From Hemileia vastatrix (lineage: Eukaryota; Basidiomycota; Pucciniomycetes; Pucciniales; Zaghouaniaceae), in the NCBI GenBank assembly GCA_030280995.1, contig JASXTE010000015.1:25538501-25602500 (forward strand): 64,000 nucleotides of DNA. The letters are read 5' to 3'. The first letter of the stretch is position 1; the number at the start of each line of letters is the position of its first letter. The notes under the pieces are model-generated. The model searched no databases. It saw only the letters and a list, made by a program, of their open reading frames with translations, and had not been told where the DNA came from. A program made the translations under genes and the position numbers. Positions 32,367 through 62,234 of the stretch are shown piece by piece.

Positions 32367-32371
32367 AACGG

Positions 32372-35318: not shown

Positions 35319-35360
35319 CACCACAGAAAATTTGGGGGGGTATTGCTAGCAGTACCCCTC
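35319..35360. repeat. Left terminal inverted repeat of element C
   Basis: CACCACAG start, G-run, then a 20-bp near-perfect palindrome centred on GCTAGC. Just inside, short repeats of GTTGGAAAGCTG type (35,370-35,415) look like CACTA subterminal repeats. Confidence 0.9.
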
Positions 35361-36213
35361 ATTTAAAAATGTTGGGAAGTGGTTGGAAAGCTGTTGGAAG
35401 GCTGTTGGGAGTTCATTGTGAAACCAGATTTAAATTAATTGGACAAAGATTTGGTAATCAGTTAGACCTAGGTTCAACCAAACTCAATCACAGGTTTCTT
35501 GGAGCTTGGTGATTACTTTGATTTTGAGCTGAGCACAGATTGAGCAAAGCTTGAACATATCACTTAACATATCATAATATTCACTTTCCCATCTTGTGGA
35601 AAGCAAAATTTGATATTCGTTCTAAGAATATCTACATATATTTTCTTGCCAAGTTGGTAACAGAAGGTTAAACTGTAGTATCTCAATTATTACATTAGAC
35701 TACATAGATATTTGATAAAACATACAATTCAAATCAATTTTAATATTATTGAGATCACCATAAGTGTCTTTCAAAAGACTTACAAAAAGTATGTTAGTAT
35801 CAAGACATCGTTCTAGGTAGTAGTTTCAATTTGGATTTTGAACTGACATCTAAAGAATTTTACTATTAGACAGAAACATAAATAAGTGTAATAAGAGTGA
35901 AATTATTCTATTTTTTGATTATAATGTAATAATAAAGCACATTTTTATTGAGAAAATTTTTCTTCCTCCACAAACCAAAATTTACTCTATAGGCTCAAGA
36001 TTTATTTTTAAGCCATATTATTCATTTCAGTTATAATTGATTTACTTCCAATATTTATTAAAAAGATAATAATAATACATGTGAAAGAATTATGAGCTTA
36101 GCATAGCATATGCTAAAAAGTTATTTTGTCGTTTTATTCAAAACTGATTCTTCATTTTTTGCTTCAATTCATCTTTTAACAACCACTATCTTCAGATACT
36201 ATTCTTACTTAAT
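35361..36213. other. Left subterminal, gene-free region of element C
   Basis: AT-rich, no gene seen; presumably holds the SNF2 promoter in its last few hundred bases. Confidence 0.5.
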
Positions 36214-38642
36214 ATGTCAAGTCTCAGATGTGTTGGACAGTTCTCAATAACAATCGATCAAATTTATATAAATGTAATTTCAAGATTTCAAAACTCACCA
36301 ACCCCCACAATTTTACAGCGAGGCCATTCGAATGTTCATATTTTTGGACTATTTGAAGAAAGAAAACCAACCCTTCTCGGTAATCTTTCTCAAGTGCAGA
36401 GTCAGCACATTGGACCACTATTGGGTGACATTGGCTCTGGATCTCACCATTTAAACCAAAGAAGTGCCTTGAATCCTATGAAGCCTTTCTCTTTTCATGC
36501 TTACTTGGTTCCAGTTTTTGGTAATCAGTATCAACTTTGGGGATGCCTCTTTTCTTCAAGTACACTAATCAGTCTTGCTAAAGAAGCATTTTCTTCTGCA
36601 CAAATTGATTTATGTCCAATCCTGAACTACGACTCCACTATCTTTTTTAATATCCCGCATGTAATTTTTGAAGGCTCTTTCCAAATATCTCAGAGTACTC
36701 AAGATTGGAAAGCTGATCAACTTATCCGAGGAATCAAAACAGTTCTCAAAACACATCAACTTCAAGCAATAAATTTTATGATTGACAATGAACGAATGTT
36801 AAAGGAAAAGTTGGATATCATGTGGAGGCACCAGGACAACCATTGGCTTAGAACTGGATTCGATGACTATAAAGATCAGTTTCCTAACAATCAATTAACG
36901 CCTGAAGGAAACGGGTCAATACTTGCTGATGATATGGGTTTGGGAAAGACACTTTCAACTCTTTCTCTTATAAGTGCAACTCAAGGTGAAGCAAGACAAT
37001 TCCAGGTATCAGAAAATCAAGAAGGTATTAATCGGAGTTCAGCCACACTGATTATATGCCCCCTGGCAACACTATCGAATTGGATCAATGAAATAAGTGT
37101 GCACTTTGAAGATAATGCGCTTCCTTTCAAGGTTCTTTATGGGAAGGATTGTCAAAATACTAATGTCAATGAGCTACAGGACACTGCTATTGTTTTAACG
37201 ACCTATGAAATAGCTAGCCCAACGATGTCAAAAAATCAAAGCCAAAAAAAGATACCAGTGACTCAAATGCTCTTTTGGTATAGAGTTGTTTTAGATGAAT
37301 CTCAGTTAGTTCCCATTTCTATATCTAAAACTTAAAACTTAATTTTTATAATCAATTTTTATAAATATTCTTTTAGTTACATTAAAAATCCTTACTCGCA
37401 GAGGGCTCAAACAATATTTGACTTGGAATCCCAACACCGACTATGCTTGACTGGAACTCCACTTCAGAACAGGCCCACTGACCTTCAAAGTCTCATATTT
37501 TTTCTTAGAATCGAAAAGTGGCAAGAAGACTGGTTGTGGAAGAATTTCCTTTTTCCAGGTTTGCAAAAAGGAAAGGCTAATTCTATTAAATCAATCAATC
37601 ACTTAATGAAAGTCATAAGCCTACATAGAACAAAGGATGCAATTTTGTCTCTTCCAAAAAAGATTCAAAGGGGGATATTGGTTCAATTAGCAGATCCATG
37701 GAGGTCTAAACTTGATGTGCTTCAAGAAGGATTCACTGAGCAATATGGGCCCTCCAGAAGCACTGACTTCCCTTGGGACTCATCTGAGTTTCTAAGAGAG
37801 CTGATGATTTTAAGAAAATTCTGCAACCATCCAATCTACGAAAATCTAGATGAAACTCCAACTTTTGATTTCACCTGGCAGAATTCTGCAAAGATTTGTC
37901 ATCTTATAGGCCACTTAAAAAACTTTTTGTCTGGTGAAAGGGATATAAATTTTCCAAAAGCTGTTATATTCTCCAACTTTGCAGACTTTTTGCAGATGTA
38001 AGTGATTCTATAATGAATTGTTTTACAAAATTGTGTTGGCTTATTAAAAACAATTTTCTAATATTTCAAAATAGAATAAAAATGGCTTTAGATGACCACA
38101 ATATTAGGTATACCCAGCTTACGGGTGAACTCAGCAGGACAAAGCAAGACAAAAATATGCATGAATTCCATTTTAATAAAAATTGCCAAGTTTTGGTTGG
38201 AACGATTCAGGCTGCAGGAGTGGGTATAGATCTCAGGTGTGCTCAAAATGTATATATAATGGTGAGCTCAATGTCTTTTATTTCATATTAAGAACAAAAA
38301 TATTAAATTTTTTATATGTTCAATGTTGAAATAGGAGCCAAATTGGAATCCAGCAGTTGAGCAACAGGCTGTTGATCGGCTGTATAGAATGGGGCAGCAA
38401 AATGAAGTAAATGTTTTGAATTATATTGTACAAGGAAGTATAGCATTCAGCATGTATAAGATTCAAAGGAAAAAAATGGAGCTAACAATGTAAGCCAAAT
38501 TTCATTTCTATAAATTTTAATGATAATAGTAATCATTAAAATTATGTTTTTGTTTTCAAGGCTAAGTGTCCCAAACAGTGGAAATGAGGAGTATGAGTGT
38601 GCAAACCTATTATTAAGGGAGTTTGTCAATCACTCACATTAG
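36214..38642 (+). CDS. SNF2-family DNA-dependent ATPase (RAD5/RAD16/HLTF-like, no RING)
   Basis: SNF2 enzymes translocate on DNA and remodel chromatin in the nucleus. Five exons (36,214-37,304; 37,377-37,997; 38,075-38,261; 38,335-38,489; 38,561-38,642) join to exactly 712 codons (711 aa) with no internal stop, and all four introns obey GT-AG. Motif I is DDMGLGKT (residues 239-246), motif II is DESH (361-364, replacing DEGH/DEAH). LTGTPLQNRP, a TIQAAGVGIDL motif V and QQAVDRLYRMGQ (about 643-654, motif VI) follow. The ~180-residue N-terminus and the large spacer before motif I resemble the RAD5/RAD16 group. However, the RING finger usual between motifs III and IV is absent, so no ubiquitin-ligase role is implied. 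Its stop overlaps the end of the convergent family-X gene by 17 bp. Confidence 0.93.
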
Positions 38643-39747
38643 AGGAAGAAAGAATTTCAAGGAGAGCAGGTAAATTTATGGGATTTTGAGGATTTAAAAG
38701 TCTGAGTTGTTGAGGATTTAGAGATGCAAGATATAAGGGAGAATAACAGTCATTCGGCAAACCCCGGGGGACATGAGAAGGATTAAGGTTAGGGGATAAT
38801 GTTGAAACCAAACTGATTCTTTTGTACAAGGCCAAGTCCTTTAGCACACTTCCAGAGTAGGTTGAATTATCTCGAATATCAAAGTGTTGTTGGTCAAGAT
38901 ATTGTGCAACTTTAGAAAAATCTTCAGACCTCCATTGCATTAAGATACGTCTTAACGATCCATCATTATCAATTTCGGTGTCTGAACAACACTTGATGTT
39001 TGTGAAAAGGTTGTGATAAGTTTCACAATGTGGAAGTTGTTTAAGAAGTTTAGTTCGGTTAACTGAATTCTAAGAATCTTTGTTATTTGAAATAAAGGTC
39101 ATAAATAAAAACGGTTGAAAAAAAAGGGATTTTCATACTTTTTTTTTTATTCTATATTTATGCTTTCTCACTTTGATTATTTCTTGAGAGCTATGAGAAT
39201 CCTTCCCAAGTCTTAATCTATCAGCATGACCTAAAAACCAACGGTGAAGAACTCCTATTTGATTTGAGAAGCTAATTTGAGTTGAGTCAATTGGATATGC
39301 AATCAAATTATTGGTTTTTAAGGCATTGTCCCAGTGTTTAATGAGAATATTTGCCAAGACCTGGTTCCATTTGTCAAACCAATCTAGGTTCCAAGCGAAA
39401 GTTGATCCTGGGAAACCACACATGCGAAGGTGCTCAATAAAAGATTCACGGAAAATTGGTGGAAACTTTTCCAAAACCGCTGAATTTGATTCTGGATGAG
39501 GTAGTTCAAAGGCAATGTTGCAAGAATTCATGTCGAATGATGAAAATCTGTCTAATTGCTCTTCAGTAGGGTTTTGTTTCCATCCATTTGATTCTGGTGA
39601 CATATCCAAAAGTGAACGACAAAAATTGTGTATAGATCTACAAAAGTGAGAATTGAATGGAGGCAAAGTCTCATTAAAAATTCTATTAAGTGTTCTTGTG
39701 TTTGTGGGCAGGTTTCCATGAGGAAAGTAAGAGCTACTAGGGTTCAT
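38626..39747 (-). CDS. Unrecognised family-X protein, copy 1 (intact)
   Basis: Two exons on the minus strand (39,747-39,139 and 39,069-38,626), intron 69 bp with GTATGA...CTTAG, giving 350 aa with no stop. No domain is recognised. Visible features are a Trp/Phe-rich central block (GFPGSTFAWNLDWFDKWNQ, residues ~110-130), a basic stretch RKHKYRIKKK at the exon junction and a C-terminal block VPRGLPNDCYSPLYL. The plus-strand gene at 44,627-46,272 matches all three blocks, so this is a duplicated family within element C. It is convergent with SNF2 (17-bp overlap). The divergent transposase lies about 1.1 kb upstream. A regulatory or DNA-binding accessory of the transposon, comparable to the second protein of CACTA elements, is possible but only inferred. 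Confidence 0.8.
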
Positions 39748-40821: not shown

Positions 40822-43800
40822 ATGCCTCCATTTTTTCATGTATGTAAATGTCAAGATCTTGGATGTGTCAATAGAAAGTATCAAACTTCTTCTGGGTCCT
40901 TTGAAGTTGGTATGGCTTTCAAAAGCTCTAATTCTTATGCAAAACATCAAGAGGAAAGAAATAGGAAGGCCCAGATGGTTATTTCTTCCAACAATCCACT
41001 TAACATTGGAAGTTCCCGCTCCACAGAAACAGTAAGCTGTATATCTATAGTTCAATGTTAGAATTAAAGTCTTTATGATGTTTCAATGATTTATTACATA
41101 GGGGCAGTTGCTATTGGGGGCAGAAGTATCTTCAACAGTCTCTAGAAACTCAAATCTTGGGGAACGGTATAGCCAAATAATTATGTGGCAGGAAGCAAAG
41201 CTTTCTCTGATTCATCATTTGAGCAAAGAAGGTTGTACTCAATTTTTGGATGAAGAAATTAAGAAGCTCAAACTTCTAGGTGATAGTGGAATACTGGATT
41301 CTGATAGCATTGTCCGCCTGGTCCCACGCTCGATAGATACAGTTTTTGTCGATTAAAGCTCAATCAATCATTTTTCACTAAAACATGCTGTCCTAAATGC
41401 TTTGCTCTTTATGAGTATAACTCTGAATCTCAACCATCTATACTATGTTTCAATCAACCGTTTCTTTCATCATCAAAGCGCTATTTAAAAATGTTTGGAG
41501 CAGGACAAATTGCAGTTAAATGTGATTAAATGCTGTATTTGATGGAGGAACATCAAGAACATGTAAAATACTTATCTCTTAAAACATTTCATCACCATTC
41601 TTTTATCGACTGGCTTAAGGAAAAGATCAAACTGTTCAAATTTGAGCTTCTGATTGAGAAGAAAACCCCTGTGGCAGAACGTGTAGAGTGTGATTTGATG
41701 AAGGATGTTTGTGATGGTTCAATTTGGAAAAACTTTCCCATAACCACTCCAGCTCTGGATAGAAATGATGATGAATATACAATAACTTCAGGCAACTTAA
41801 TGTTTACTTTATATGTCGACTGTTTTAGGCCTGGTGGCAATAGGATTGGAGGTCATCAGAAGTCTTTAGGCAATATTATGATGGTGTGTATGAACCTACC
41901 TCAAGAAGATAGATACAAAATGGAAAATCTTTTTTTGTATTCTATTATACCCGGACCAACAGAACCCACAAGTTAACAGCTTAATCACCTTCTAAAACCA
42001 CTGGTTAATGATCTACAAACTCTATGGGATGGTATATTGATTGAAAAGACACATCTTTATCCACGAGGCTGGAAATTAAGAGTTGCATTGTTCTCTTTGA
42101 TAGGTGACATTCCTGCAATACAAAAATTGGCTGGCTTTTCGAGTCACTCTGAAAAAATGTTCTGCTCTTTCTGTAATATCTCTAAAGATGAAATTAGTGA
42201 AAAGAATGTGGGAAATTTTTCATTACGGAATCATGAGGATCATATGTGCTGGGCAACAAAGTGGAAAAATTCTAAGTCACATTGGGAGCATGTATCAATT
42301 GTTCAAAAATATGGGGTACGATGGAGTGAGCTGAATAACCTTGAATATTGGCGTCCAACTGAATATTGCTCAATTGATGTTATGCATTCACATATTCTTG
42401 GCAACCTAAAAGATCACAGTCTAAGCTATTTTCAAATCCAAAATGCAGCAAAAGATCTAGAAAGAAAGCTGGAAAAGGATAAAAATTGGCATATAAGAGA
42501 AGAAGATGATGATTTCTTTTCTGATACTTCACTGCACAAACATTCGAAAAAACGTAGAAGTAGCTTAAGCACCACGAATAATGATGATGATGATACAGGA
42601 CACACGAGACAGCACAAGCGGCAAAGACGTACAAGTTCAAGACAGTCATCAAGTCATCATGGACTTGATAATGAAGGATTGGGAACAAATCGATCAAGAA
42701 GCCAGAGTAGGTCATCCAGCTCCAAATTTATTCCTCCATATAGCGATGTGGCCTCAATACAGTCTCACAGAAGTGACAGTAGGAATTCATTGTATAACTT
42801 GAGGCAAAGAAGCATTAGCATATCACAGAGTGAAGGATCTCACTCATCAAATGAGACAGCTAGAGATGAAGAAAATAAAAGGAAAGGTAAGGAGAAAGAA
42901 AATGAAGGTAGTAGTAATCCACGAATCACAGCAGCAGAGCTACAGGTTGTATGGAAGATGATTGATCAAGTAAGAAGACCTTCCTGGCTAACACGAGTTC
43001 CAAAATCAGTAGGATCTAAAAAGGCAGGATTACTCAAGGCAGCAGAATGGCACATGCTGTATACTCTCTACTTCCCTTTGTCACTTATACCCCTTTAGTT
43101 TGAAAAATTTAAAGAATCTGAATCTTCAGCTTCCTCAGCTGATAAACCAAGAGAATATTATCTTCTCAAGTCACTTGTAACATTATGCTCAATCACCAAT
43201 TTTTTGACATTAAAAAATATACAGACTAATGAGCTTAAAGATCTAGATCCATTTCTGTTAGAGTATCGTGAGTGCCTTGAAGAGGGTTGGAACAATATTA
43301 ATGTAAAGCCAAATCTGCATATCACTCAACATTATCCTGAAATGATAAAGTGTCTTGGTCCACCATCAGGTACAGCTACTTGGTCTGGAGAGCGGGTGAA
43401 TCATATATTATCTGAAATTCCAAACAATCACCATCCACGTATGTAATGTTTGTAAGCAATGATTTAAAAACTCAGCTGTGCTAATTTATTAATATTTACC
43501 ACAGGAGAGATACCGCTAACAATGCTCAAACATTGGTATCGGAATTCTAGGGTATTAGATCTTGGTGAAGCTGAAGATAATGATCGATGTGAGACTAAAA
43601 AAATCCATATTGATCTCGATAAACAAAACAAATGGATCCATCTAAGTATGGCATTATTTACTAAATGGGTAAGGTCACGAATGGGAAAAGAAACTTCAAG
43701 ACGGGCTTTGACACCATCGGAGAAAAGTGGGGATTGGGTAGTTGAAAATGTAGCAAGCATATTGATACATGGAAAGAGGTTTACTAGTTACCATCTTCAC

Positions 43801-44199: not shown

Positions 44200-44212
44200 G
44201 ATTGGTGATATT

Positions 44213-44626: not shown

Positions 44627-46272
44627 ATGGATGATAATTTTGAAGGGATGTCTGTTGACCCAACCGATTCTGATTGTTTTCCCCCTCAACATACTAATAC
44701 TGGAAATACTCCTCCACCACCCTCTGCTGATCCACCTCCAGATGCATCTCAATCTGTACCACCTAATCCCAATCCAGGCGAAGAGTCTCATTCAGAACCG
44801 AGAAATTTTAATCCCAATCATCCTTCTGCTTCTGAAAGTGCTGATCAGCTAGGAAGAGATTGGGCTAGTGAAGTATTGAGGGAATTTTTCGGAGACCAAT
44901 CATCATCTGCTCAGCCTAACCAAGGAGCAAGCACAAGTGGAGCAGGTAAGTCAAATTTGTAGTGTATTCTTTTGTTGAAAAATAACCAATTTAATTAACT
45001 TATTTGAATTGTTAGTGAATCCCTCAATCATTATGGGTATCAGTGATTACCACAGACTCAATTCAGCAGAGTCTCATGAGTGAGAACGGGGGTTAAGGGC
45101 TGTAAGAGGCTTAGTTAGAAGGAATGATGTTCCCAGGAGCTCGGACAGTCTAAATAGAAATATTTACCACTTTCTGAAGTATTGTCTTGGGGGACCAACA
45201 CAAATATCAAAATATCCTGCGAGCCCAACACCTTTGGAGATTGAAAATTGGAAAGATTGGAGCCAATTCAAACTAAAAACCATTCAAACTGTCCTAACCC
45301 AAGTCCAATCTTCTAACCGTGCCAATTCTGCAGCTGATCGACAATTTCTGATAACCAATTCTATAGCCTTCTTGCAATCCAAAATTCGACTACCCGAATT
45401 TTTTCCAGCACCTGAGCCTCAAGGACTAAAAGGAGGAGCACCGATCCCACTTTCTGTCAAAAGAAACTTAGAGCGTGAATTGCAAGAAAAAGGTTTTCGG
45501 AAATTTGCGTTTGATTGGACTTGCCGTGATTTTTCAGAATCAACTTGGAATCAAGTCATGGGAAGCATAGTATGCGACCACTGTACCAGATGGCTCACCA
45601 CCTTGAATACAATCGATCAGTCAAAGCTTCAGTTCACTCAATGTGTTATTGAGAAATGGGTAGTTAATAAGGGGAAGGAGATGATAAGGTTGTTTGGGCA
45701 AGAAGAGGAAAGGGTAGCAAGAGAAAAGATTGAAAAGAGGGCAAGGACACAAGTAAAACGTTATCGGACCAAGGTAAGTTTTTTATTTTACTTTGCTTTT
45801 TGTTATTATGAAGCTGATTTAGTTGGAATTCAGATTGCTAGTGCACGCTACAAGTTAGCAAGAGATCTCTGCAGTGATGTGCCAGGTTTTGTTGTGCTTT
45901 TTCATGATACTAGGTGCATCTCTGATATCGAGGAAGGCCCAGCACCAGCCCCAACTGCACCTATCCGAGCTATTCCTGGATGGTGAAATCCTGAACTCAA
46001 TGATTTGTTTAAAAAAATGGATAAGATGACAAAGGACTTAGCCCATACACCAGCTCAAAAAATCAGCATTAAAAACATATTCACGGTCATCAGAAAGGAC
46101 AGTTGCACAAAATGGTATATTCAATGTTCCCAAATACCTCCCCAAGAATTGCTATTCAGCAACCTTTTTGCAAGGATTATCTGTGAATGAACGTGAGTCA
46201 CTTGGGGTTGGAGCTGATATTGATCTGGTAAAGATTCGGGAATCAATTAATAGAGCATCAACATCATCATAA
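44627..46272 (+). pseudogene. Family-X protein, copy 2 (decayed)
   Basis: Exons 44,627-44,945, 45,016-45,773 and from 45,834. The N-terminus is Pro/Ser-rich and acidic; the core FRKFAFDWTCRDFSESTWNQ matches FAWNLDWFDKWNQ of copy 1. The tail VPKYLPKNCYSATFLQGL matches VPRGLPNDCYSPLYL. Defects are TGA at 45,081-45,083, TGA at 45,984-45,986 (copy 1 has Arg after the Trp at the aligned site, consistent with CGA to TGA) and a one-base-class frameshift between about 46,040 and 46,085 before the tail. The orientation is the same as the transposase, 0.4 kb downstream of it. Copy 1 is intact and inverted relative to it. Function unknown. Confidence 0.75.
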
Positions 46273-46487
46273 CTTAGGTATAACGGTGATCTTCTGTGTA
46301 ATATAGCTATCTTATATTGAATTTTATGTATTCTGTTTTTTTTCAAAGCAGCTTGGTAAATGTTATAAAGTGATATTGAGAGAGAGTAACATTTTATTTA
46401 AGAAAAACAAATAATGTATGAGATATAAAAATGTATTTTCAACAAATTGATGGTCCATACCTCTTTATGTCACATTTATGTATCCAT

Positions 46488-48425
46488 ATTAATTTCAATC
46501 GAATTTAATGTTGACCAATACATAGTGAATACACGCTATGCCACTTATACTTGCCAGGCATTGCTACCATTAAATATGCCAGTATCAAAAATTAATTCCG
46601 ATTGAAATTAATGAGCATGATAATCATGAATTTCTGGAGTCAACTGCTTATTTTTATGCATGGTGCCTTGCCAACATTAATTTCGATCGAAATTACTTTT
46701 GATACTGGCATATTGCATGGTGTCTATTCCTGGAAAGTGTAAGTGGCATAGTGTGTATTCATTACGTATTGGTCAACATTAATTTCAATAGAATTTAATA
46801 TTGACATTTTCATATTGAACCCAAACCAGCAAACGACCCAAAAAATTCTTCATAAAACTGCTCATTAATTTTGATCGAAATTAGTGAGCACCATATACAT
46901 ATTGAATGGTAGTTATATCTGGTGTGTGTAAGTTGTAAAGCTTGTGTTCAATGTTTATTGGTCAACATTAATTTTGATTGAAATTAATATTAATGTGTAA
47001 ATGATATTTACATGCTCAATATGCATTGTAATGTGTTTACTTAAGAATAGAGTGCCCTACTTTTCATCTTACATAAAAATGCTTGGTGGCATGTCAAATT
47101 CAATTTTTATTAAAATTAATGTTGACATGTTACCATGCATAACAGTAAGCAACTGACTGAATAAATTGATGATAATCATGAACCTTAATTTCGATCGAAA
47201 TTAATGTTGCCAAGTGCAGATTGAAAAAAAGCTATGCCACTTACACTAGCCAGGCATATCTACTATTTATTATGTATTGGTCAACATTAATTTTTATAGA
47301 AATTAATATGGATATGTAAATTTTATATTTACCCTCAACATGTATAGTAAATTTCAATACTTAAAAATACTTGCCGTCCTTTACATGTCATGCAAAAAAG
47401 CATTATATCATTTCAACACTAATTTTGATCAAAATTAATGTTGGCATGCCATTATGCATTGAAACAACTAACTGACTGAAAAAGTTCATGATCAAAATGC
47501 TCATTAATTTTGATCAAAATTAATGTTGACCAATACATATTGAATATAAGTAATCTCTGCTTACTCAGACCAGATATAACTACCATTCAATATGTATATG
47601 GTCAGCCTTAATTTCGATTGAAATTAATGGGAAGTTTTATGAAGAATCTTCTGGGTTGTTTTCTGGCTTGGGTCCAATATGCAAATGTCAACATTAAATT
47701 CAATCGAAATTAATGTTGACCAATACATAATGAATACACACTATGCCACTTACACTTTCCAGGCATATATACATGCAATATGCCAGTATCAAAAGTAATT
47801 TCGATCGAAATTAATGTTGGCAAGGCACCATGCATAAAAATAAGCAGTTGACTCCAGAAATTCATGATTATCATGCTCATTAATTTCGATCGAAATTAAT
47901 TTTTGATACTGGCATATTTAATGGTAGCTATGCCTGGCAAGTGTAAGTGGCATAGCATGTATTCATTATGTATTAGTCAACATTAATTTCGATTGAAATT
48001 AATATGGACATGGACTATGCATAAAATTCCTATAAGTATAGGTAAGCTAAGCAGTTAGATAAACTGGTTTGATCAAGTACACCATATAAAAATTGATGTT
48101 TTAATGCCTTGGTTAATTTCGATCAAAATTAATTTTAAGCCATGCATGTTGAATTTTATCTATGTCTGTGTAGTCCATGTGAAATGGCTTGTATTCAATA
48201 TGCAGGGGTCTATATTAATTTCAATCGAAATTATGAGGTTCATTGCCTCATAAATTTGATGGTTTCTGTCAGTGTTTCATGCATGGTGCCATGTGATACT
48301 TGTTGATTCCTATCAAAATTAATTTCAACACCAATATATTGAATACAAACCATGGCACTTACAGTACTTGGTCATAGCTAAAATTCAATATGCTAGTCTC
48401 AAAATTAATTTCGATAGAAATTAAT
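46488..48425. repeat. Array of ~20 CpG palindromes (TTAATTTCGATCGAAATTAA)
   Basis: Copies start at 46,488, 46,591, 46,676, 46,778, 46,864, 46,967, 47,099, 47,185, 47,286, 47,418, 47,503, 47,607, 47,693, 47,794, 47,879, 47,982, 48,113, 48,214, 48,302 and 48,404. The consensus is a perfect 22-bp palindrome with two CpG sites. Most variation among copies is CpG to TpG or CpA. Copies 1-6 and 11-16 mirror each other about 47,246, making a ~1.5-kb imperfect inverted repeat; copies 6-8 and 9-11 are direct duplicates offset by ~319 bp. No coding potential. Subterminal or regulatory binding sites for a transposon protein are the likeliest role (inference). Confidence 0.92.
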
Positions 48426-49459
48426 CAGGATCCATGAAGTTTATCAATAGTGTATGAGTTAAGTTTCAAGTCATATGTTTCATCATTTTCTTGCACCCAT
48501 TTCTAGGTTATCTCAACAATTTTTTTCAAGTTTTATTATATTAATAAAAACTGTGGTAAGTTGTGAAAAATTAGCTAATCCAAATCTCAAATTGAATATT
48601 AATATTTTAATAATTTTGAATGTTGCTTAAGGTATTTCATTGGGTGATTCATAATAATATTTTATCAACTTAGTAGTCCTATAAATTTTGAAAAGTAACA
48701 ATTTTGGTATAGTTAGGGACAACAATGCAATATCTTGTGCAGACTAAGATATATTGCAAAATAAAACTATTCAATTTTTTTTTTCCCTTAGTTGTATCCA
48801 AGTTTATCAAAGGTTTGGTCACGGTGCCCACACCCTAGCCTGACACTCCTCCTGTCACTAAAAAAACAAATTCTTATCTTAAATTCTAATGTTACCAATT
48901 TTATATTTATAATTCATTTCTTGTTTGATGAGGCATATCAGTATATATGTGAATCTTGCATTGTCATCTGAAAGTAAATTTAACAAATATTCATAAAGGA
49001 TTATCCTTTTTTTTCATATAATATACTAATTAAGTGTATCTCCATTGTTTAGGAGTAAATTCTAATTTAAAAAATTTTGTATTTACCCGTGGCAATTTGC
49101 AGATGGGATATAAATTTGTTATTATTTGTTTTTCACACTAAAAGTCCCCAACGAATTACTAGTATTTTCTGTTAGCTTGATCAAATTTCGCTTCAATATA
49201 AACAGATTGTGATTTAGCATGTTACTCAGTTTACCCCACTATGAATAATACATGTTAAAAAAAGCTCAAATAATATAAAATCCCCCTCTTTATGTTTTCT
49301 GTTTCTTTCATCCTCACTTTAATTTTAATCTTATTCAATTTTTTATCCTATTAAAATATCAACTTCAATTTTCTAGAATAGAGTTTCTTATAATTATTCA
49401 TCATATTACATCATAATTTTTTGATATCGAATACTTTTTTTTAATATTCATTAATCAAT
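48426..49459. other. Gene-free spacer after palindrome array
   Basis: AT-rich; the last 150 bp is a TC-rich stretch before the next gene's ATG, typical of fungal promoters. Confidence 0.45.
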
Positions 49460-51887
49460 ATGTCTAGTATACAAAATCCTACTCCTCCACTTTGTATGTA
49501 TATCATGTTCCTCTCTCTTAATTTATATATTTCACTTATGTTCTATATCTTTTTTTTTCAAAAATTTGATTTTCCAGCACCCAAATGTGTTTCATCCCAC
49601 TCTCTGATTGATACTCGCTTTGAAGCTTTTGAGCTTGCACCATGTCTGCCACATGGCATGGCACCTAACCCTCCTGTACTTAGCAATGAGAGGCAGGAAA
49701 TAACAAGAGTTCAGTATCGCAATTTACTTGAATTGGCTAGAGATAAAACAGAAGAGCTTGTCAAGATCCTTAACAATAATCCTTCTCCTTCATATTTATC
49801 TAACCCTTGTAATGACTTACTCCAATATGTGAAAAGCCATGAAAAATGTATGTTCATCACCTTTTTTGTCTCCTTTTAAATTAGTAGATAAGATTATAAA
49901 TATTTTTTTTCTTCATATATATTTGTAGCTTATGAGGAGGGTATGATTCCTCCTGATGAAGTCATTGTCATTAGGGATGATGATGAGACAGATGAACCAT
50001 CAGCTTCAACTCATGCTTCAACTTCTAAGGAAAATCTTGAAACACCTGTTATCCGCTCCAAGAAAAAGAGATTATTCCAAGGCTCCTCTTTTGTTCGACG
50101 TATTAAACCGGCTTCTGCTAATGAATTTTCTGATGTATCAAATAATAAATCTCAAAAAAAAGCAAAGGTTTTGATAATGAGTATATTCTTGTTTCCTTTT
50201 TTTTTATTGTTATTCTTTTATCTTTAAAATTCAATCATATATCTCTTTTATTGCTTACATATTCTACTTTTTATCTTTCTTTTGATATTTTGTACCAGAA
50301 ACTCACCTGCTGTAGATTGTTCCATCCATAAACGCCCTCTCCCTGATGAAGATGATGAAAAGAGCAATGAAAATAGCGATGATCAACTGTCAGAATATGA
50401 AGCTATGCTTGTTCATCAAAAAAAGCAAAGTTTAAAATCTTCTTCAAGACATGTTGATATGTTTGATAAAGATGATGATTCAAACAGCTCATCACCGAAT
50501 TCCTTCATTTCTAAGAAGCAATACCCATCACCTCCTAAATTACCTACTTTGACCACTTTGAAAGATTCTCTACCAATGAGATCAACTCCAATCAAGATAT
50601 CGAAAAAACCTCTAACTTATTCACCCTCAGTTCTAAAAGAATCTGATTTGCAGGAGGAATTCTGTAAAATTCATAATTTTTATAAAGGTAGAATCAGCAT
50701 GGCAAAGGTCCTCAGGTCGTGGTTGGAAATTGTTACTCTCCTCGAATTATGCTCTTCTACTTCTTCCCAAGAACCCATGTCAAATATTCCAATGTTTACT
50801 TTTCATTGGGAAAAATCTTGTGGAGAAGATTGGCTTTCAAAACTTACTGAGTTATGAAAGTTACCATAATTTTTAGTCTTGACTTTTGTCCTTTTACTTA
50901 TTTTTTTTTTCCTTTTGTAGCAAATATTTTTTTAGAGATTGATAGCTCACAGCTATGGGTACTCGATAATATTGATTTCAAAAAAATGGAAGATTTATGT
51001 GATCCTGATGGTTTAAATACTGAAATTCTTTCCTCAACAAAGAAAACGGATCACCCTGAATCCAATCTTATCCAAATGCTCATGAGATTAATGATCCCAA
51101 GTGACCACTGCCGTTCTTCATGTGTATCTCTTATATCATCTTCACTTTATCTGACCGCACATGAATTCAGCCAGCTTCCATCACATCAAAACATTAACTC
51201 AGATTGTCCAATTGAACGTGGTCTTCAGCTTCTAGCTCACCTTTCAAATCTGAAGAGTCCGATTTCTGATGGCTTAGAAGTTGGTCCCACTGCACTTCAA
51301 ACCCGTGATATATCAATGTCAACTCTTCTTCAAATCAGCAATATTATCATTGATATAGTTATGTCAATTATCATTCTTAAATCAAAATATTGTGCTGCAA
51401 CAATATCAAGTGGCAAGACTAGTGAAGCTCAACAATCAAGTGAGAAAAACAAAAATACTGAACTGACTATAATGAGAGAGAAACAAAAGGCTGCACTAAA
51501 CAAAATAAATTCTGAATACTACCACCACCAATATCAATCTTTCACATTCTATATAATCGATGGTGTCCGTGGTTTATTTCTGAGCTATCAAGATCATAGA
51601 TTGGCTTCAGCAGCTGATTGCTTGGAGGTAATATCAGAAGTTAAGTTTCTTAATTTACATGAAAAAAAAATCATTTTATGGAAGAAATAATTTGGAAAAA
51701 TTTAAATAACTATATTTTAACATCAATAAAACCTTTTATAGGCAAGTGTGATCCATTTCCTTTAAAATTTGATACCCCAAGTCCTCCGGGAATTGCCAGG
51801 GCTATTTCTGCAGATTTTCTTAATCACTGGAGCTCCATTCAGCCAGTATCACCTTTTTTTGCTAAACATAGCCTTTCAATAAATTAA
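49460..51887 (+). CDS. Unrecognised multi-exon protein of element C
   Basis: Starts at ATG 49,460 (MSSIQNPTPPL). Supported junctions are 49,493/49,578 and 49,847/49,929, both GT-AG and phase-consistent. Further introns fall near 50,180-50,320, 50,820-50,920 and 51,629-51,740, but their exact borders are not certain, so an inactivating change cannot be excluded. The product would be roughly 600 aa: an N-terminal helical part (RVQYRNLLELARDKTEEL), an acidic and Ser-rich low-complexity middle (VIVIRDDDETDEPSAS; DEDDEKSNENSDDQ) and a mostly helical C-terminal half, including a hydrophobic run SNIIIDIVMSIIILK. The end is at TAA 51,885-51,887. No family recognised. It is tandem with the transposase genes and convergent with the oxygenase. 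Confidence 0.6.
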
Positions 51888-52807
51888 TATTCCAACATGT
51901 AAATAGATAAAGTTCTGTCTATATGATATATCTTGTATAATTCAAGTTATTTTCCTTCAAATACGTCAAAAATGTGACCATCTTTGAAATTTATTAAGTA
52001 ACCTTTGACATGATTTTCTAAATTAATTATTAAAAAAAATTATTGTAAGTCCAGCAATAACAAAGATTTTAAAATCTACTTATATGATTTCAAATACTTG
52101 TATTAAACTCTTAAATATTTTATTGTTTATATAAAAATATGATAACTGCTCTAGTTTTGTTACTTTACCTTTAATATTATATAATCTATTAATTATTACA
52201 AATATTTTCGTTGATTGTAACATTTTTAATCAGAAGTAGAACAATTTAAATAATTAAATGAGTACATTCTTAAAAAAATACAATTTAATCTATTATTGAT
52301 TCAAAATTCTTTCTTCAACTCTTTATTATTAACTTTTTTATTAATAAGCCTGTTTGACCTAAAATACTATACAGTTAATTTGGTAGCATTAAAAGCACAT
52401 TTTTATGGCTAATATATTTCAAATTCTTTATTATAGTTTTTTTTATTTTAGAACCTTTGCTACCAATTTAATAAAAATGACATTTAAAGATTTCACAACT
52501 TATATATTTCCTCAAAAGTAAATCAAATTTTCTTATAATATTATGAAAAAAAATATTTTATTTCACAAATAAAAAAAATAGATAATACTATAATTATCAA
52601 AACTGAAAATGTTACAGCTACTCCCAGTATTTATCATGTTTAAATTTGCATTAAGTTGTGTATATATAATATAAATTTTTAATATTTATATATCTAGATT
52701 TTTTAGATTTGTCTTACCATTAGATAAATAATACTTTGCTGATTCTATTTCTTCCTCTATTAAGTCATCTCTTTTCAAAAAAACTCTCAAAGCACTAATC
52801 AAATATT
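51888..52807. other. Gene-free AT-rich spacer
   Basis: Between two convergent genes; no repeat or gene recognised. Confidence 0.5.
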
Positions 52808-53887
52808 CTAACCTAAATTTTTCTTTTTAATTTCTAAGTATTCTGAAATATCAATATCAAAAACATTAAGCTTTTCTATAGCATGAAAAAGTCTAGTGCT
52901 GATTTGAATAGAAGAACCTATCCTAGTGAAGCCAGGAATTTCATGACATCTTGAGGTAAAATACCTTAGTTGATTGGCAGGCCATAATGTCACTGTTATT
53001 CCATTAGTTGCTTCAAAGTTGATTTTACTTCAAATTTCGGGAAACATAAGTTCTCCACCTATTTGTTGTGGTTGGGTCTTATCATACTTCATATGAATGG
53101 TGTTTTTTTCTGTATCTTTAGGAAAAAATATTCCTAAAGTATACTCACTTGCATCCTTATCAAGATGAACCTCATTAGAGAACCCATTACCATTCCCTCC
53201 AGATGTCCAAGTTAAATTACTAGCAAACGGTACACCCTCTTCTTCACTAGAAACTTTTGAAAATCCAGGAATACCAAGTTTTGCGCAAAGATTAGTTGCC
53301 TCATTGTACTTTACATATGATATTTTTTTAAAAAAATATTCAAAGTACATTGCAATCCTCTTCATTCGTTTTTTATATTCATCCGTTTTTACAATATCAT
53401 CAGTGTATTCATCTGCAAGGAAAAGCATTCAAAAATTCAGTATTTAAATTAAAAAAAGTGATACTTACGAATATGTAAAGATTTCTTTCTATCTAAAATA
53501 AAGCCACCACCAAACATTTTTCCAAAACCACCAGCTCTTTGATGATAACCATTATTTTTAATTTCATGTTCGCAGTAAGAAAGATCCTTAATGCATCGCA
53601 CCGTAGCTTCTAACATATCTAGTTCTTTGAGCTCATGAATTTCAAAAGTCTGCACAAGAACATTAGGTATTAAGACACCTTTTGGTTTATAAATACTACA
53701 TCCAGGAAAAAAATTGTAATAATTATTGCAATCTGTCATATTATTTGCATAAGATCGTGCATAGAAATGTGGCTTCTTCCTGTTTGTATCCATTCCAAGA
53801 GCGTTTACAAGTTTCATTCCAGTAGCAATGTCTTTCACCCACCTATTGTTAGAGTTCTTCCCTGGCCGTTTTTTTTTTCCAAATCGT
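52808..53887 (-). pseudogene. TET/JBP-like 2-oxoglutarate/Fe(II) dioxygenase, one nonsense codon
   Basis: TET/JBP enzymes oxidise 5-methylpyrimidines in DNA. Exon 1 ends at 53,469, intron 53,413-53,468 (GTAAGT...TTGCAG), exon 2 53,412-52,808. Visible core: SNEVHLDKD with the iron-binding HxD (His 53,167-53,165, Asp 53,161-53,159), then LWPANQLRYFTSRCHEIPG with the distal His (52,945-52,943) and an Arg shortly after (STRLF or FTRIG) to hold 2-oxoglutarate. The overall text resembles the Tet-like oxygenases expanded in basidiomycetes. Defects are TGA at 53,032-53,030 (CGA to TGA would explain it) and a possible frameshift at an A10 run (53,871-53,880) separating the best ATG (about 53,896) from the frame. 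The start is therefore uncertain. Confidence 0.75.
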
Positions 53888-55640
53888 TACTCATTGATGG
53901 TTCAATCCTAAGAGAATTCAATTTTGATTTAAAATAGAAAAAAATCAAAAATTAGAAAATAGTAACATAATTTCAATTATCAGTCAATGATACCTTTAAC
54001 TTTATCATATCTTCAATATTAGAAATACAAAAGTTAGCATATCTACATATTAGTAAATTTATATACTTTTTCTTTATTTCAAATATTAAGAAAGCGTTTC
54101 AAAGGTATACTTTATTAGATTATACATATAAAGAGTATAGCTTTATCCTGTATGCATTCAGCAAGTACGAGATTTGGCTCTACACTTAATATTAATAATA
54201 TAATGAAAGTATAACTCCAATACACTAGTAATATTAAAAAATTTACGGAATTATGATATCCACATATATAAAATGAAAAATCTTGCTCTGATCAATATAT
54301 TGACTTAGAAAGTTATACTTCAATAAATTATTAATTTTTAAATTGTAGCATTGTCCTGTATGCTTTCAGCAAGTACGAGACTTTGAAACAACTTAAAAAT
54401 CAATAAATTAAAGGTAAAGTACAAACAATCTAATTATTATTATGAAAAGCAAAACATTATCCTGTATGCTTTCAGCAAGTATGAGATGATGTTTTACTTT
54501 TCATATTAATAATATAATGGTTGAGAAAGTATTAAAGAAATATAGAAAAATGATAAGCAAAACATGAACTTACATGTCTATAAAATCTTCTTCCATTTGT
54601 AGCTGATTGATCAAAATTAATTATAAAGTTTATTTTATAATCACTGTTTTAAAAAATAAATGGTTAGATAAATAAATTGAACATTTTTGATAAGGAATAA
54701 AGAAAAGTAAATTGACAAACAAATAAAAAAACTTTAAGTTAACTGAAAAAGAATTATTTTATAATGAATCGAAAGGGTACAGTAAAAGATACCATAAAAA
54801 TAAATTCAGAATTAGAATCATTAGATTAACTTGCCAAAAGTGTAAAAAAGTGTAACAAACCAAAATGATATGAAATGCAATAGCAAGAAAAATTTGCTTA
54901 CTGGTAATCAGATAAGGTCAAGAAAATAGTACCAATAATTCAAAATGATAAAGCAAAAATATGATTGATAATTTTTGAAAAAGGTAAGTGTGAAAGAGAA
55001 TGGAAAAATAAATTGGGTGGCAAACAGATGTATATATCATGAATTTTCACTGATCACATTTTCAAAAAAATGCAGCTCTCCAAGTCATATGATAAACTTC
55101 ATCTAAATTCCAAGAATGATGTTGCCAAGGCACTGTACACAGCATGATCATTTTTTCCTATGCATATACTAATTCCAGCTAGAATTTACTTGGCTGCATG
55201 TTGTACAGATGCACATTTGTGGAACACTGAATTTCACATCTAAAAAAAATTGACGCCACATAATTCTAGCTACCATGTTTCACGTAGCTAAAAAACATAC
55301 ACTCATCACATTTAAATTTACATTGCGCCAAAATTAATTCATTTTTGAATTTTTTTAAAGGAAACTATAATGTGCACCACCTATTTCTAAAATATGAACC
55401 TCCGCACCATATTAAATTGGGAGACTTTTAATTATGCAATTTTTTTGCCGTGACCTTTTTCCTGATCTTACTTGGTTCAAAATATTGAAACATGGCCAAT
55501 GTTGATGAAAGAAACATTTGATTTTGTTTCTATGTGTAACAATGGAAGGCTGTTTCTTACTGGCTGAAGAGTGTTGTATATTTTATTTGAACAAATTTTT
55601 ATTTTTTTATGTATTTTATTTAAAAAATTTACTTTTTATT
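53888..55640. other. Gene-free region upstream of the oxygenase
   Basis: AT-rich. Holds three 28-bp direct repeats (separate entry); otherwise nothing recognised. Confidence 0.5.
54145..54487. repeat. Three dispersed 28-bp direct repeats
   Basis: TCCTGTATGCTTTCAGCAAG followed by TACGAGA occurs at 54,145-54,172, 54,352-54,380 and 54,459-54,487 with one or two changes, in otherwise unrelated AT-rich DNA upstream of the oxygenase gene. Possible protein-binding sites. Confidence 0.8.
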
Positions 55641-56227
55641 GCAGCCAGATTTATACTGGCTGCTTTTTAGAAACCTTAATTTATGACCCAAGCCTTTGAA
55701 ATTGGCTTGGGTCCCTTACATTGCAATTTAGTACTTCCAGCCAGGTTTCCCCTGGCTGGAAGTGTCTCTTTCAAGCAATTGAAGTTGCTAAAAGCAACTT
55801 CGATTGCTTGCTGTAATGTTTGCCACCCTCCCAGCTAATTTACTAGGCTGGGAGGTGGCCAAAGCAGTGTGCAACGTGCGTTGCTGCTGCAAGTAACACG
55901 CGTTGCACAATCGCTACCATATTTCATGCAGCTGATATCAAGTCAGCTGCATGAGATATGCGCAGCATGTGCAATGCGCGCTGCATGCAGCAGAAAGGCG
56001 CGTTGCATGCAATGCGCATTACTTGCAGCAGCGATGCGTGTTGCATGTGCTGCATGCAGTGCATTGCACAGCCAGTTTTTTTCTGGCTGTGCAATGCACA
56101 CAGAGAAACCAAAGTCCCTGAAAGGGACTTTGGTCTCTAAAATGGAAGCGACTTTCCCTACCAGGTGCAATCTGGTGGGAAAGTGAGAGAAACGTTAGAC
56201 CGAAGTTGTTTGAAAGCAACTTCGGTC
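55641..56227. repeat. Hairpin array 2
   Basis: About eleven short inverted repeats in 590 bp. Examples: GCAGCCAG/CTGGCTGC (55,641-55,663), GACCCAAGCC/GGCTTGGGTC (55,685-55,713), CTTCCAGCCAGG/CCTGGCTGGAAG (55,734-55,762), CCTCCCAGC/GCTGGGAGG (55,827-55,855), GACCGAAGTTG/CAACTTCGGTC (56,198-56,227). Several stems share words with array 1 (CAGCCAG, TGGCTTGGGT-like, TTGCATGCAGC), but order and sequence differ and there is no tandem unit. GC-rich against a very AT-rich background. Open frames here are by-products of the inverted repeats. Confidence 0.88.
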
Positions 56228-58518: not shown

Positions 58519-58550
<32 letters not shown>

Positions 58551-60258
58551 TTAGAAGGTCATCCTTTTTTATTTACTTGAATAAATGGCTCAATTATAAT
58601 ACCCAACACTTATTAATGTTTCCCAAACTCAATAACAAATTTCTCATATGAAATATTAGCTTCTAATATAAGAAGTTTATCTATAGATGATATTCAACAT
58701 GTGATTTTACTTTTTAGATTCAGCTAAAATTAAACAAAAGGAGAAATCATGCATATGTGTATAAATGGTAACCATATGTTACTTAGAGGATTGTGAAATT
58801 CACTCATCAGAATGGTTTAAGTATTAAAATAAATTGAGGTCATTATTTTCTAGTATTTGAAACTAATTAGGAAATTATTCTAAAAATATATTTTAATGTG
58901 TATCATGTTTAAAAAGTTGGAAATATGATTTTTGAAAATTGTGAGTTTCTTATGAGATACCAAGCTTTAGTTTACATTGTTTCAAGTAGAATAGAATTTT
59001 AGTATTAGAAATTGAAAGCAATGTACCATTATCAGATTTTAACTGTGTTCTACTTATAGAATGATTACATAACATTAAACATTATTTAAATAAAAAAGGT
59101 TTAAAAGATATTTAGAATTTTACCAAATTTCACCATTTATTAATCTTTGATTTGAAAACAAACTATGATGTACACTCACTAGAAATAAGCAATCACAATT
59201 TTAACATAATTTATCAATCCAAAAATAATGAGTCAATTAACATGAAAATATATATTATTTCAAAACCAATTCTCTAGATTTAAAATATGATGCTTTAATG
59301 AAAAATTATTACAAAACTTTAATGCAATGAAGTCTCTTAAAAAATTCAAAAATAGAATATCAAAACAAGTAATTTCTGCAAAAAAAACTACTAACTATTG
59401 TAGATAAAGCATAAAAATAAGTCATATTTTTTAAAAAAATGATCTAACAATATTTATTTTTGTTAAAAAAATCAAAACATTGTTAAGTTTGTTGTTATAA
59501 TAATGTTAAAATCCACTAAACATTATCTAAAGGTGGTAAAATATGTTAAAAATAAGTTGAATTTTATGAGATAAAAATCAACAATTTTGTATCATTTCCT
59601 GTTGTGCTATGACTTTATTCCACCCTTTTTATCTGATTCTTCCAGTATTACTTTGCTATGATAACTAGTTTTCAAGTTAAAATTTACAAATGTTCATTAT
59701 ACTTGATAATATGAAAAATAACTCAAACTTTTATAACTACAAAATAAGATTTTGTAACTCCTTCTTTCAATCAATATTTGAAGAAATTTTTAGTTTATTT
59801 GAGTAATGATTTTAAGAATAACAAAAAATTTGAAATTCACAAGGAATTATTTCCAGAGACTATAATTATTTACTTGTGTAATGCATGAGCTACTTATCAA
59901 TGATGTAAAACATCAGAAAAGTAAGTTATAGTTATAAATCTACAGATTATACTGTTTCTGGTATATATATCTTCAATAAATCTTTTAAACTTATCTTAGC
60001 CTACATACCACACAATAGAAAATCATTATATTAAAAAAGGAAAAAATTCTATGATAATATCATAAAGAATGATAACCATGGATTAATATTCCATAAAAAT
60101 GGTTAATAATATTTTAAGAGAACCTAAATCAGTATTCTTTCATCAAAATATATCCTTTTTGTCTTTGTAATTTATTCCAAACAAATTTTTTGAAAGTTGA
60201 ATCTATATATCTAATGCCAAAACCACTATTAAGTTCCCTCTTAGACTTTTTAAGAAAT

Positions 60259-60289
<31 letters not shown>

Positions 60290-61984
60290 TATTTATCAAA
60301 AATTGAAATAAAGAATAAAAACATAATTTTATTTACCTTTAATTATTTAAATATAGAGTATTTTCAGAATGCATTGTGGTTACTTGTGAAGGTTAGAAGA
60401 TTTGATGTTGGATTTATGAGTTTTTAGAAGGGCAAATATTGTAAAATTCTTTCATAAATATTTATTTCATAGTTTCAAATGTTGAAATCTACAAACTAAT
60501 GGGATTTAAAATTATATTGAGATTTAAAATCTGTTTTCTACTCAAGTAAAATAAAATAAAATGATGATATCAAAATTGAAATTAAGTTTAAACTTTTGAT
60601 ATGCTCTATCTTCAATTTTATTGATAGTGCATCAAAAATTTAATAATATTTTTTTCCTTCATCACTTTTTACATAAAAGATATTTTTATCATTTTATGAA
60701 TTAAAGATTGCTTATATAAATTTAACATCTATGTCAACTGTTTATGACTATTAATCTATATAATAAATGTTTTAGAAGAAAAAATAACATCAGTATATAC
60801 TGACTTTGAAATTATTCAATTTAAAATAGTTTACAGGTAGATAATGAAGGGTGATTTCATTTTTGAATATGAATTATAGAAGTCTTATTTTGTCAATTTT
60901 AATTCTTTTTGAGCTCAAATGTATCCACCGCAACTTATGTAAGAATAAAAATTATTTTTATTGAAATTTACATGAGAAAGTATGCCTATTATTCAAAATC
61001 AAACTTGCTCTAATGGTGTTTTTCAATCATTATTTCCATTCATAACAATAAAAAACATTTCAATTTGATGATGTTTTGGTTTTTAATATCCCCAAGTTTA
61101 TATCTCAGGTGTACTATTCACAAAATTATTAAAAATATAATTTTCGAAATACATGATAAACTTGAAAGTGAGGGGGCATTAAATTTTTAAAAATAAATTC
61201 TAAATTCAGGATGGATAGTATTTTTTCTATTTTCACAAATGAACAATTTTTTGTTTCAATTAATCCAGAAAGAAAATTTTGTTGTAAGCATATTATATTA
61301 TATTTATTATGATTTTAAATACTATATTTTCAAGATTTGTGTTTAATATTTCCTGTGAAAGTTAATGTTAATGTGAATTTAAAGTAAGCTTGAAGAAATT
61401 TAATCAATAGGCATATTGGATATTTAAAATAATATTTTGCTCCAATCTTGAATCATCCTGGGCTAAAAAATATCTCAAATAAGGTTTTTGTGGGTCAATT
61501 TGGATTTAAGTAGGATTAAGTGAGGTTTAATAAAGGACAGATAAAAGGCTAAATTCATTACTAGTGACTTTTTTCTCAAAATAGTTATAAAATATGGATC
61601 ATTCTGGAATCAAGCTTCAATAAAGTTGAATTGAAACAGAGATAATTTCTAGCAGCACAACACCATATTTACAAAGGTGTAAAATACCTCAAATATTACT
61701 CATAATATAGGAAGGCAAGGAATCTAAAAAATTCACATTTCAAACGAGGATTTATATTTTGAATTTGAAATTGAGAAATGGAATATTATTTTCCAATTTA
61801 AATATCTATTAGTCATTTTACCAAAAGTTTTCAGTAATCAGATTGAATTTTGATGGTATTTTGTTGTAGATTAATCATTTTGATGAGACATTTACTCAAA
61901 ATTACTGGTTTCGTTTCTAATATTCCATGTGAAATTCATTACGAATCTTTTTGAAAGTGAATAGTTGACATATTGGATATGCAA
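56228..61984. other. 5.8-kb gene-free AT-rich right part of element C
   Basis: No supported gene on either strand, no frame of note. Two TA microsatellites (about 58,519-58,542 and 60,259-60,289) and scattered A/T runs. It may be old decayed sequence or a structural spacer. Confidence 0.6.
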
Positions 61985-62234
61985 AAGCTTATGTTAGATC
62001 AAAGTGAGATCAAAGGGAGTTTAACTGATGATCAAATTAGGATTTTACAAGATCAAACGGTGATCAATGTAGGTTCATCTTGAGCTCAATTTGTGACAAA
62101 TCTCTGACTAAATGTAAGGCCAAACAATCTCCTACATGGTGATGATGTGTGCATAATTCAAGCATAGATTTGTGGCTCAACGGAGTTCAAGCAAGGGGTA
62201 TTGCTAGCAATACCCCCCCATTTTTTCTGTGGTG
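61985..62234. repeat. Right subterminal region and terminal inverted repeat of element C
   Basis: GATCAAA-type short repeats (62,000-62,080), then a 20-bp perfect palindrome centred on GCTAGC (62,195-62,214), a C-run and CTGTGGTG. Short subterminal repeats are usual in CACTA elements. Confidence 0.88.

What the first reader, a model, noticed from the sequence alone, without database searches (positions are those of the whole stretch)
35319..62234. A 26.9-kb CACTA-like element carrying an SNF2 ATPase, a TET/JBP-like oxygenase and a CpG-palindrome array
Both borders are fixed by CACCACAG...CTGTGGTG ends, matching GCTAGC palindromes, an ATT duplication and the exact rejoining of an open reading frame in the host gene. 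Within these borders sit a Tnp2 transposase and cargo linked to chromatin and DNA methylation. Known CACTA elements usually carry only a transposase and one accessory protein; TET/JBP genes near DNA transposons have been described for basidiomycetes. The whole set inside one bounded unit suggests a self-de-silencing transposon. Seen: borders and genes. Inferred: that they work together.
Basis: partly seen in the sequence, partly recalled or inferred. Interest (0 to 1): 0.92.

Follow-up and report, generated by a model that had tools for sequence, protein, structure and literature searches.

The report
Giant transposon carrying TET and SNF2
This is one worn-out copy of a 27-kb jumping gene, present in roughly 1,200 copies in what is probably a rust fungus; a chromatin motor and a DNA-demethylation-type enzyme are kept parts of the element, so it probably carries its own tools for escaping DNA silencing.

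Summary
In detail: 35,319-62,234 is one bounded element (inverted repeats alike at 37 of 40 bases, ATT duplication, rejoined host frame). Six other copies fetched whole are 26.93-26.99 kb, 98.8-98.9% identical to it, each with its own 3-bp duplication. Its ends occur 2,422 times in the 748-Mb genome (reversed control 0): roughly 1,200 copies. Genes travel together: SNF2-chosen copies had TET in 9 of 10, TET-chosen had SNF2 in 8 of 10, Tnp2-chosen had SNF2 in 9 of 10. A second family (70-73% DNA identity in two blocks) keeps the gene order and the set; dN/dS is 0.18-0.32 for SNF2, 0.16 (rough) for the TET catalytic exon, 0.30-0.33 for the transposase. Both have an internal palindrome array with core TTCGNNCGAA. 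CpG sites decay 8-70 times faster than other C. The window copy itself is dead: stops in Tnp2 and TET. TET-bearing EnSpm elements of rusts are published (PMC12730594); SNF2, the array and the scale appear new. Self-de-silencing remains inferred.

The parts
35316..35318 (.). target duplication ATT, left copy
35319..35358 (+). left terminal inverted repeat (CACCACAG.., GCTAGC palindrome)
   Evidence: 37 of 40 bases match the right end; ends found 2,422 times in the genome at up to 3 mismatches
36214..38493 (+). SNF2 ATPase, 685 aa, open after splicing; introns 37305-37376, 37998-38074, 38262-38334 (my reading, no RNA)
   Evidence: PF00176 5.6e-56, PF00271 8.1e-17
38626..39746 (-). Acc2, two exons, no Pfam family, distantly alike Acc1
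   Evidence: kept in the second family at 64% aa
40822..44199 (+). Tnp2-type transposase gene, broken here by an in-frame stop at 41974-41976
   Evidence: PF02992; stop absent at that place from six other copies
44627..46272 (+). Acc1, no Pfam family; reading frame disturbed near its end in this copy
46467..48438 (.). inverted/direct repeat array with TTCGATCGAA palindromes (4 exact here, 7-9 in five young copies)
49574..51887 (+). gene 6, unknown protein, several exons (start not settled)
   Evidence: last exon 46% aa over 186 residues in the second family
52686..53899 (-). TET/JBP-like oxygenase, two exons, broken here by a stop at 53029-53031
   Evidence: PF20515 2e-14 on a window piece, 5.9e-24 on a young copy; stop absent at that place from six other copies
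62195..62234 (-). right terminal inverted repeat
62235..62237 (.). target duplication ATT, right copy

Best explanation
A decayed member of a young, very abundant EnSpm/CACTA-type DNA transposon family. Shown: one unit with SNF2, Acc2, Tnp2, Acc1, a palindrome array, gene 6 and TET, which moved as a whole and makes 3-bp duplications; the same set stands in a second family, and SNF2, Acc2, Tnp2 and TET are kept there by selection. Inferred: Tnp2 with Acc1/Acc2 binds the ends and the array; SNF2 opens silenced nucleosomal element DNA; TET oxidises methyl-CpG, with the CpG palindromes as an address; together they keep the element expressed and slow its loss by methyl-CpG deamination. TET plus SNF2 would work like the two domains of trypanosome JBP2, and the array like the fast-changing target repeats of Arabidopsis VANC.
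For: Full-length copies with own duplications; 2,422 ends against 0 in the control; genes linked in copies chosen by three different genes; same order and set in a second family, dN/dS 0.14-0.33 for SNF2, Acc2 and Tnp2 and 0.16 for the TET catalytic exon; shared array core TTCGNNCGAA; CpG-directed decay in all seven copies examined; JBP2 joins a TET/JBP oxygenase and a SNF2 domain (PMC10057400 passages); VANC target repeats diverge rapidly (PMC10398659 abstract).
Against: No methylation, expression or binding data. CpG decay goes on in the young copies too, so TET does not fully protect. TET exon 1, first part, is less constrained (dN/dS 0.52) and dS of the catalytic exon is near saturation. 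Several copies have stops: C42 (Tnp2), C631 (Acc1, TET), C260 (SNF2, Tnp2), window, and 13 of 150 listed TET hits end at 132 aa. In Spm the bound repeats are subterminal (recalled); here the array is internal. Acc1, Acc2 and gene 6 have no known fold.
Confidence: 0.6

Rival explanations
1. TET mainly protects the element from CpG hypermutation (a RIP-like process), not from transcriptional silencing, and SNF2 serves transposition or gap repair as a Rad5/HLTF-like motor.
For: CpG C-to-T excess of 8-70 fold; nearest named SNF2 relatives outside the close group are mainly HLTF/Rad5/SMARCA3-like; Kojima 2025 offers protection from hypermutation as one reading.
Against: The CpG array and JBP2-like pairing fit an address-and-eraser reading as well; CpG decay persists in young copies.
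Confidence: 0.27
2. SNF2 and TET are passenger cargo picked up by chance and carried along without use to the element.
For: TET genes pass between rust transposon superfamilies (PMC12730594).
Against: dN/dS like that of the transposase between families with about 36-48% protein divergence, and the same order in both.
Confidence: 0.07
3. An assembly join or a chance cluster of unrelated genes and repeats between two look-alike ends.
For: The surroundings are repeat-rich with Gypsy-like ORFs.
Against: Six collinear full-length copies on six other contigs; 25 of 35 neighbouring exact end pairs on C2 lie 25.5-29 kb apart.
Confidence: 0.01

Closest known systems
TET+ EnSpm families of Pucciniales (Kojima 2025, PMC12730594; abstract, sections 3.1, 3.4, 4 part 1 of 2, legends and passages seen)
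   Same: TET gene inside a bounded EnSpm element with CAC..GTG ends and 3-bp duplications in rust fungi; transposase with weak Plavaka likeness.
   Different: SNF2 is not mentioned in the main text; an internal CpG-palindrome array was not seen in the sections read; supplement not open to me, so SNF2 there cannot be excluded.
Maize Spm/En (recalled; only search listing)
   Same: Tnp2-type transposase plus further proteins; methylation-sensitive repeat motifs.
   Different: No TET or SNF2; its repeats are subterminal, here internal.
Arabidopsis VANDAL/VANC anti-silencing (PMC10398659, abstract)
   Same: Transposon-coded escape from silencing acting on fast-changing repeats (here inferred).
   Different: VANC is a binding protein of MULE-type elements (recalled); no oxygenase or SNF2.
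Trypanosome JBP2 (PMC10057400, passages)
   Same: Pairs a TET/JBP oxygenase with a SNF2 motor that gives access to chromatin.
   Different: One fused protein that writes base J, not in a transposon; here two separate genes.
KDZ transposons with TET/JBP genes (PMC12730594)
   Same: TET/JBP gene in basidiomycete DNA transposons.
   Different: Different transposase; Zisupton and a Dileera give 8-bp duplications.
SNF2 over-representation in wheat rusts (PMC5295586, passages)
   Same: PF00176 enriched 2.56-fold, Q 5.77e-12, against eight other basidiomycetes.
   Different: There read as adaptation of gene regulation; transposon carriage may explain part of it (inference).

Membership tests
CACTA/EnSpm superfamily | Transposase_21 (Tnp2) domain | tested here: met
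   PF02992 1.7e-7, 31.1 bits over cut-off 28.6; Plavaka only 20.2 of 26.3 bits
CACTA/EnSpm superfamily | CAC..GTG ends in inverted repeats | tested here: met
   CACCACAG..CTGTGGTG, 37 of 40; not the literal CACTA
CACTA/EnSpm superfamily | 3-bp target duplications | tested here: met
   7 of 7 whole copies incl. the window: ATT, AAT, ATT, ATT, AGA, GAT, ACT
CACTA/EnSpm superfamily | DDD/E catalytic residues with C(2)C and H(3-4)H | not tested
   CSFC is visible in the protein; residues not assigned
CACTA/EnSpm superfamily | subterminal repeats bound by an accessory protein (recalled from Spm) | tested here: inconclusive
   repeat array is internal, 11.3-12.9 kb into the element; binding not testable
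TET/JBP oxygenase | Tet-like 2OG-Fe(II) domain | tested here: met
   PF20515 5.9e-24 on young copy C26, 4e-20 on the second family
TET/JBP oxygenase | HxD..H iron triad | tested here: met
   HLD and RHFTS in young copy C26, His read in five young copies, Tyr in the window copy; assignment of the second His is mine
TET/JBP oxygenase | oxidation of methylcytosine | not testable with these tools
   no assay data
TET/JBP PU type of Kojima 2025 | PU-type conserved residues | not tested
   figure alignment not available
SNF2 ATPase | both lobes with ATPase motifs | tested here: met
   PF00176 and PF00271; GLGKT, DESH, QAVDRLYRMGQ read by eye (motif names recalled)
Rad5/HLTF subfamily of SNF2 | RING and HIRAN domains | tested here: not met
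   no Pfam match to either in the 685-aa protein at E up to 1; it is only nearest in sequence to this group
KDZ transposons | KDZ transposase and 8-bp duplications | tested here: not met
   Tnp2 match and 3-bp duplications

The most novel reading that the evidence does not exclude
The element codes a multi-part silencing-escape machine: a DNA-binding protein pair (Acc1/Acc2) that reads a CpG-palindrome address, a SNF2 motor that opens the chromatin there, and a TET enzyme that erases the methyl mark. The address diverges between families while a 10-bp CpG core is kept. This machine let an unusually large 27-kb DNA transposon reach roughly 1,200 copies without short derivatives among the exact ends examined.
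Probability: 0.42. Interest if true: 0.9.

Novelty: new variant of a known kind. Interest (0 to 1): 0.76.

Why it matters
TET genes in rust transposons have been read as anti-silencing tools by association. Here TET is part of a kept, selected module with a chromatin motor and a methylatable target array, in a family with many young copies, some broken and some not. That makes 'do transposons demethylate themselves?' testable by reading methylation on natural copies. It may also explain part of the SNF2 over-representation in rust genomes.

Tried and rejected
Assembly join and chance association: rejected by collinear copies. Passenger cargo: rejected as the main reading by selection and synteny. 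A shared TET stop as a subfamily marker: locus L036 has the same 132-aa open frame as the window copy but is no closer to it than to the rest (98.6% to the window, 98.6-98.8% to the others), so the stop probably recurred. Homologue searches: Acc1 piece none, gene 6 one near-identical fragment. PDB searches with TET pieces found nothing. A single-sequence AlphaFold model of the middle of Acc1 was useless (pLDDT 40). The TET dN/dS was a frame error and is replaced; the codon counts had misframed blocks and are replaced, where the first Acc1 block is still misframed, so the Acc1 counts are not used beyond the stop noted for C631. In the last listing the labels of L079-L088 are mispaired; the BLAST part is right. 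One search stopped with an error before C260's residue and the duplications were printed; the duplications are read. Family B was seen as one element in four stretches with a nested Gypsy-like ORF; its right end was not seen. Not answered after repeated tries: PF20515 and PF00145 searches of the genome and a Tnp2 protein search (not repeated). Not run: an empty-site DNA search. The host species was not identified.
Full report
What is there. The window holds a complete element from 35,319 to 62,234 (26,916 bp). Its ends are 40-bp inverted repeats with 3 mismatches, each with a GCTAGC-centred palindrome, and ATT stands directly outside both. Taking out the element and one ATT leaves a 399-aa open frame in the host sequence. 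Genes in order: SNF2 (+), Acc2 (-), Tnp2 (+), Acc1 (+), a 2-kb palindrome array, gene 6 (+), TET (-), then about 8 kb that is mostly AT-rich. Gene models are my own splice readings, not supported by RNA.

It is one of very many. The window is part of a 747.6-Mb genome in 791 contigs. SNF2 exon 1 gave 112 scored hits, all full length, 98-100% identical (the window itself included) and without stops; these are the best of 3,461 candidates, so intactness is biased upward. The TET exon gave 150 scored of 3,085 candidates, all 98-100% identical; 125 of 150 have a 247-aa open frame and 13 of 150 end at 132 aa like the window copy. The end pattern (33 positions, up to 3 mismatches) occurs 1,221 + 1,201 times; the reversed control 0 times. 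That is about 1,200 copies, or some 32 Mb and 4% of the genome if each is 27 kb (my arithmetic, not a count of whole copies). Six copies that I picked from the SNF2 list, on six contigs, are 26,932-26,993 bp; five are 99.73-99.84% identical to each other, C260 is 99.0-99.1% from those five, and the window copy is 98.8-98.9% from all six. All six have matched 3-bp duplications: AAT, ATT, ATT, AGA, GAT, ACT.

Do the genes travel together? I chose copies by one gene and looked for another. TET-chosen: from 129 without a listed SNF2 I drew 20 (two small contigs left out) and fetched 10; SNF2 gene DNA was seen in 8 of 10; in the other 2 the sampled stretch fell on other element DNA because of length changes. 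Tnp2-chosen: 10, the first of 19 that I had picked from the 150 after leaving out those with a listed partner; SNF2 was seen in 9 of 10, one of them at only 76% DNA identity, and nothing matched in the tenth. By BLAST the right end was seen in 7 of 10 SNF2-chosen copies, the left end in 6 of 10 TET-chosen and 7 of 10 Tnp2-chosen. On contig C2 the listing gives 90 ends without mismatch; 35 neighbouring ones form convergent left/right pairs, 25 of these at 25.5-29 kb, none under 10 kb, and no two ends are closer than 25,812 bp. So no short derivatives exist among the exact ends of C2; ends with mismatches and other contigs were not examined this way. All 8 listed SNF2 hits and 11 of 12 listed TET hits on C2 fall inside end pairs under 50 kb; many pairs have neither in the lists, which are capped.

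A second family keeps the set. The 76% copy (C348, from 6,233,480) begins CACCACGGG.., is 70.6% and 73.4% identical in two long aligned blocks, and has SNF2, Acc2, Tnp2 and the start of Acc1 in the same order and strands. Further in it has the end of Acc1 (50% aa over 144 residues), a palindrome array, gene 6 (46% over 186) and TET (52% over 240), with a Gypsy-like ORF in between. Nei-Gojobori dN/dS between the families: SNF2 0.320 and 0.180, Acc2 0.141 and 0.323, Tnp2 0.302 and 0.332; TET catalytic exon 0.162 with dS 2.3, so rough; first part of TET exon 1 0.52, second part 0.23. Gene 6 had saturated dS, so no ratio. SNF2 and TET are therefore kept about as strictly as the transposase. Single copies then decay: the window copy has 30 nonsynonymous against 5 synonymous private codon changes in Tnp2, 3 of them stops; 5 against 1 in TET, with 1 stop; 7 against 8 in SNF2, no stop. 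C19, C26 and C128 show no private stop in the blocks counted; C42 has one in Tnp2; C631 one in Acc1 and two in TET; C260 one in SNF2 and three in Tnp2.

The array. In family A it holds TTCGATCGAA 7-9 times in the five young copies, 5 in C260 and 4 in the window copy; in family B TTCGGCCGAA 10 times exactly in the sampled 5 kb, inside longer palindromes. The core TTCGNNCGAA is absent from the other B stretches L099, L100 and L102, and in the A copies it lies only between 11.28 and 12.94 kb. The repeats around the core look unrelated between families (by eye). A fast-changing array around a kept CpG core suits a binding address (inference).

CpG decay. Counting changes private to one of seven copies, C-to-T (or G-to-A) at CpG against the same at other C/G was 33/429 against 19/7,481 in the window copy, 32/384 against 9/7,503 in C260, and an 8 to 62-fold excess in the five young copies (p 0.037 to 2.3e-7). 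This is what methylated CpG would give; methylation itself was not observed. It shows that the element meets CpG-directed decay and that TET does not abolish it.

Kinship. A maximum-likelihood tree of SNF2 puts both families in one branch (98/98 support) with 15 close hits against 16 more distant ones; of the 15, 11 carry Puccinia names and 4 no name (I used 31 of the 120 hits listed). More distant named hits are mainly HLTF/Rad5/SMARCA3-like. The source is therefore probably a rust fungus; no tool named it. Twenty hits carry P. triticina locus names, which suggests that the SNF2 family is multiplied there too; their surroundings were not seen.

What is known. Kojima 2025 (PMC12730594) describes TET+ EnSpm families with CAC..GTG ends and 3-bp duplications in P. 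striiformis, and related EnSpm families in other rusts including A. psidii, and proposes escape from methylation or hypermutation. SNF2 does not occur in its main text. My searches for SNF2 with CACTA/EnSpm, rust or transposon terms listed no report of SNF2 inside such an element; I saw listings only, and the library holds open-licence papers. PMC5295586 lists SNF2 as enriched in wheat rusts (passages). JBP2 joins a TET/JBP oxygenase and a SNF2 domain in one protein (passages).

Mechanism. Shown: mobility as a unit, gene set, selection on four genes, array, CpG decay. Inferred: what Acc1/Acc2 bind, that SNF2 and TET act on element DNA, and that this restores expression. I put 0.6 on self-de-silencing in the broad sense and 0.27 on mutation protection plus a repair role as the main benefit.

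Noticed in passing
window 13300-17320 and 1-720: Another palindrome array with a period near 605 bp, of the kind GTCCAGCACAAGTT..AACTTGTGCTGGAC, like the array of family B but with decayed cores; probably a remnant of a family-B-like element.
   Followed up: partly
window 55700-56200: A GC-richer, CpG-rich patch inside the AT-rich right arm (23 CpG in one 500-bp bin of copy C26, observed/expected 0.86), with a 38-bp tandem unit; looks like a nested insert or a regulatory patch.
   Followed up: no
window copy and C260 (alignment): Besides CpG transitions, C-to-A/G-to-T changes are unusually common outside CpG (40 in the window copy, 36 in C260), more than non-CpG transitions (19 and 9).
   Followed up: no
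genome-wide TET hits: 13 of 150 listed TET hits end at 132 aa like the window copy; L036, one of them, is not specially close to the window copy, so the stop site looks like a recurrent CpG hot spot.
   Followed up: partly
window 34749-35318 and 62238-62864: The host frame cut by the insertion (399 aa when rejoined) has a cysteine-rich start (weak Zn_clus match, below cut-off) and a GC-rich stretch near 35215-35260; not identified.
   Followed up: no
window 5197-11814 (-) and 18448-25149: Several interrupted Gypsy-like polyprotein ORFs on both strands; a 469-bp tandem unit repeated 2.5 times at 31206-32372.
   Followed up: no
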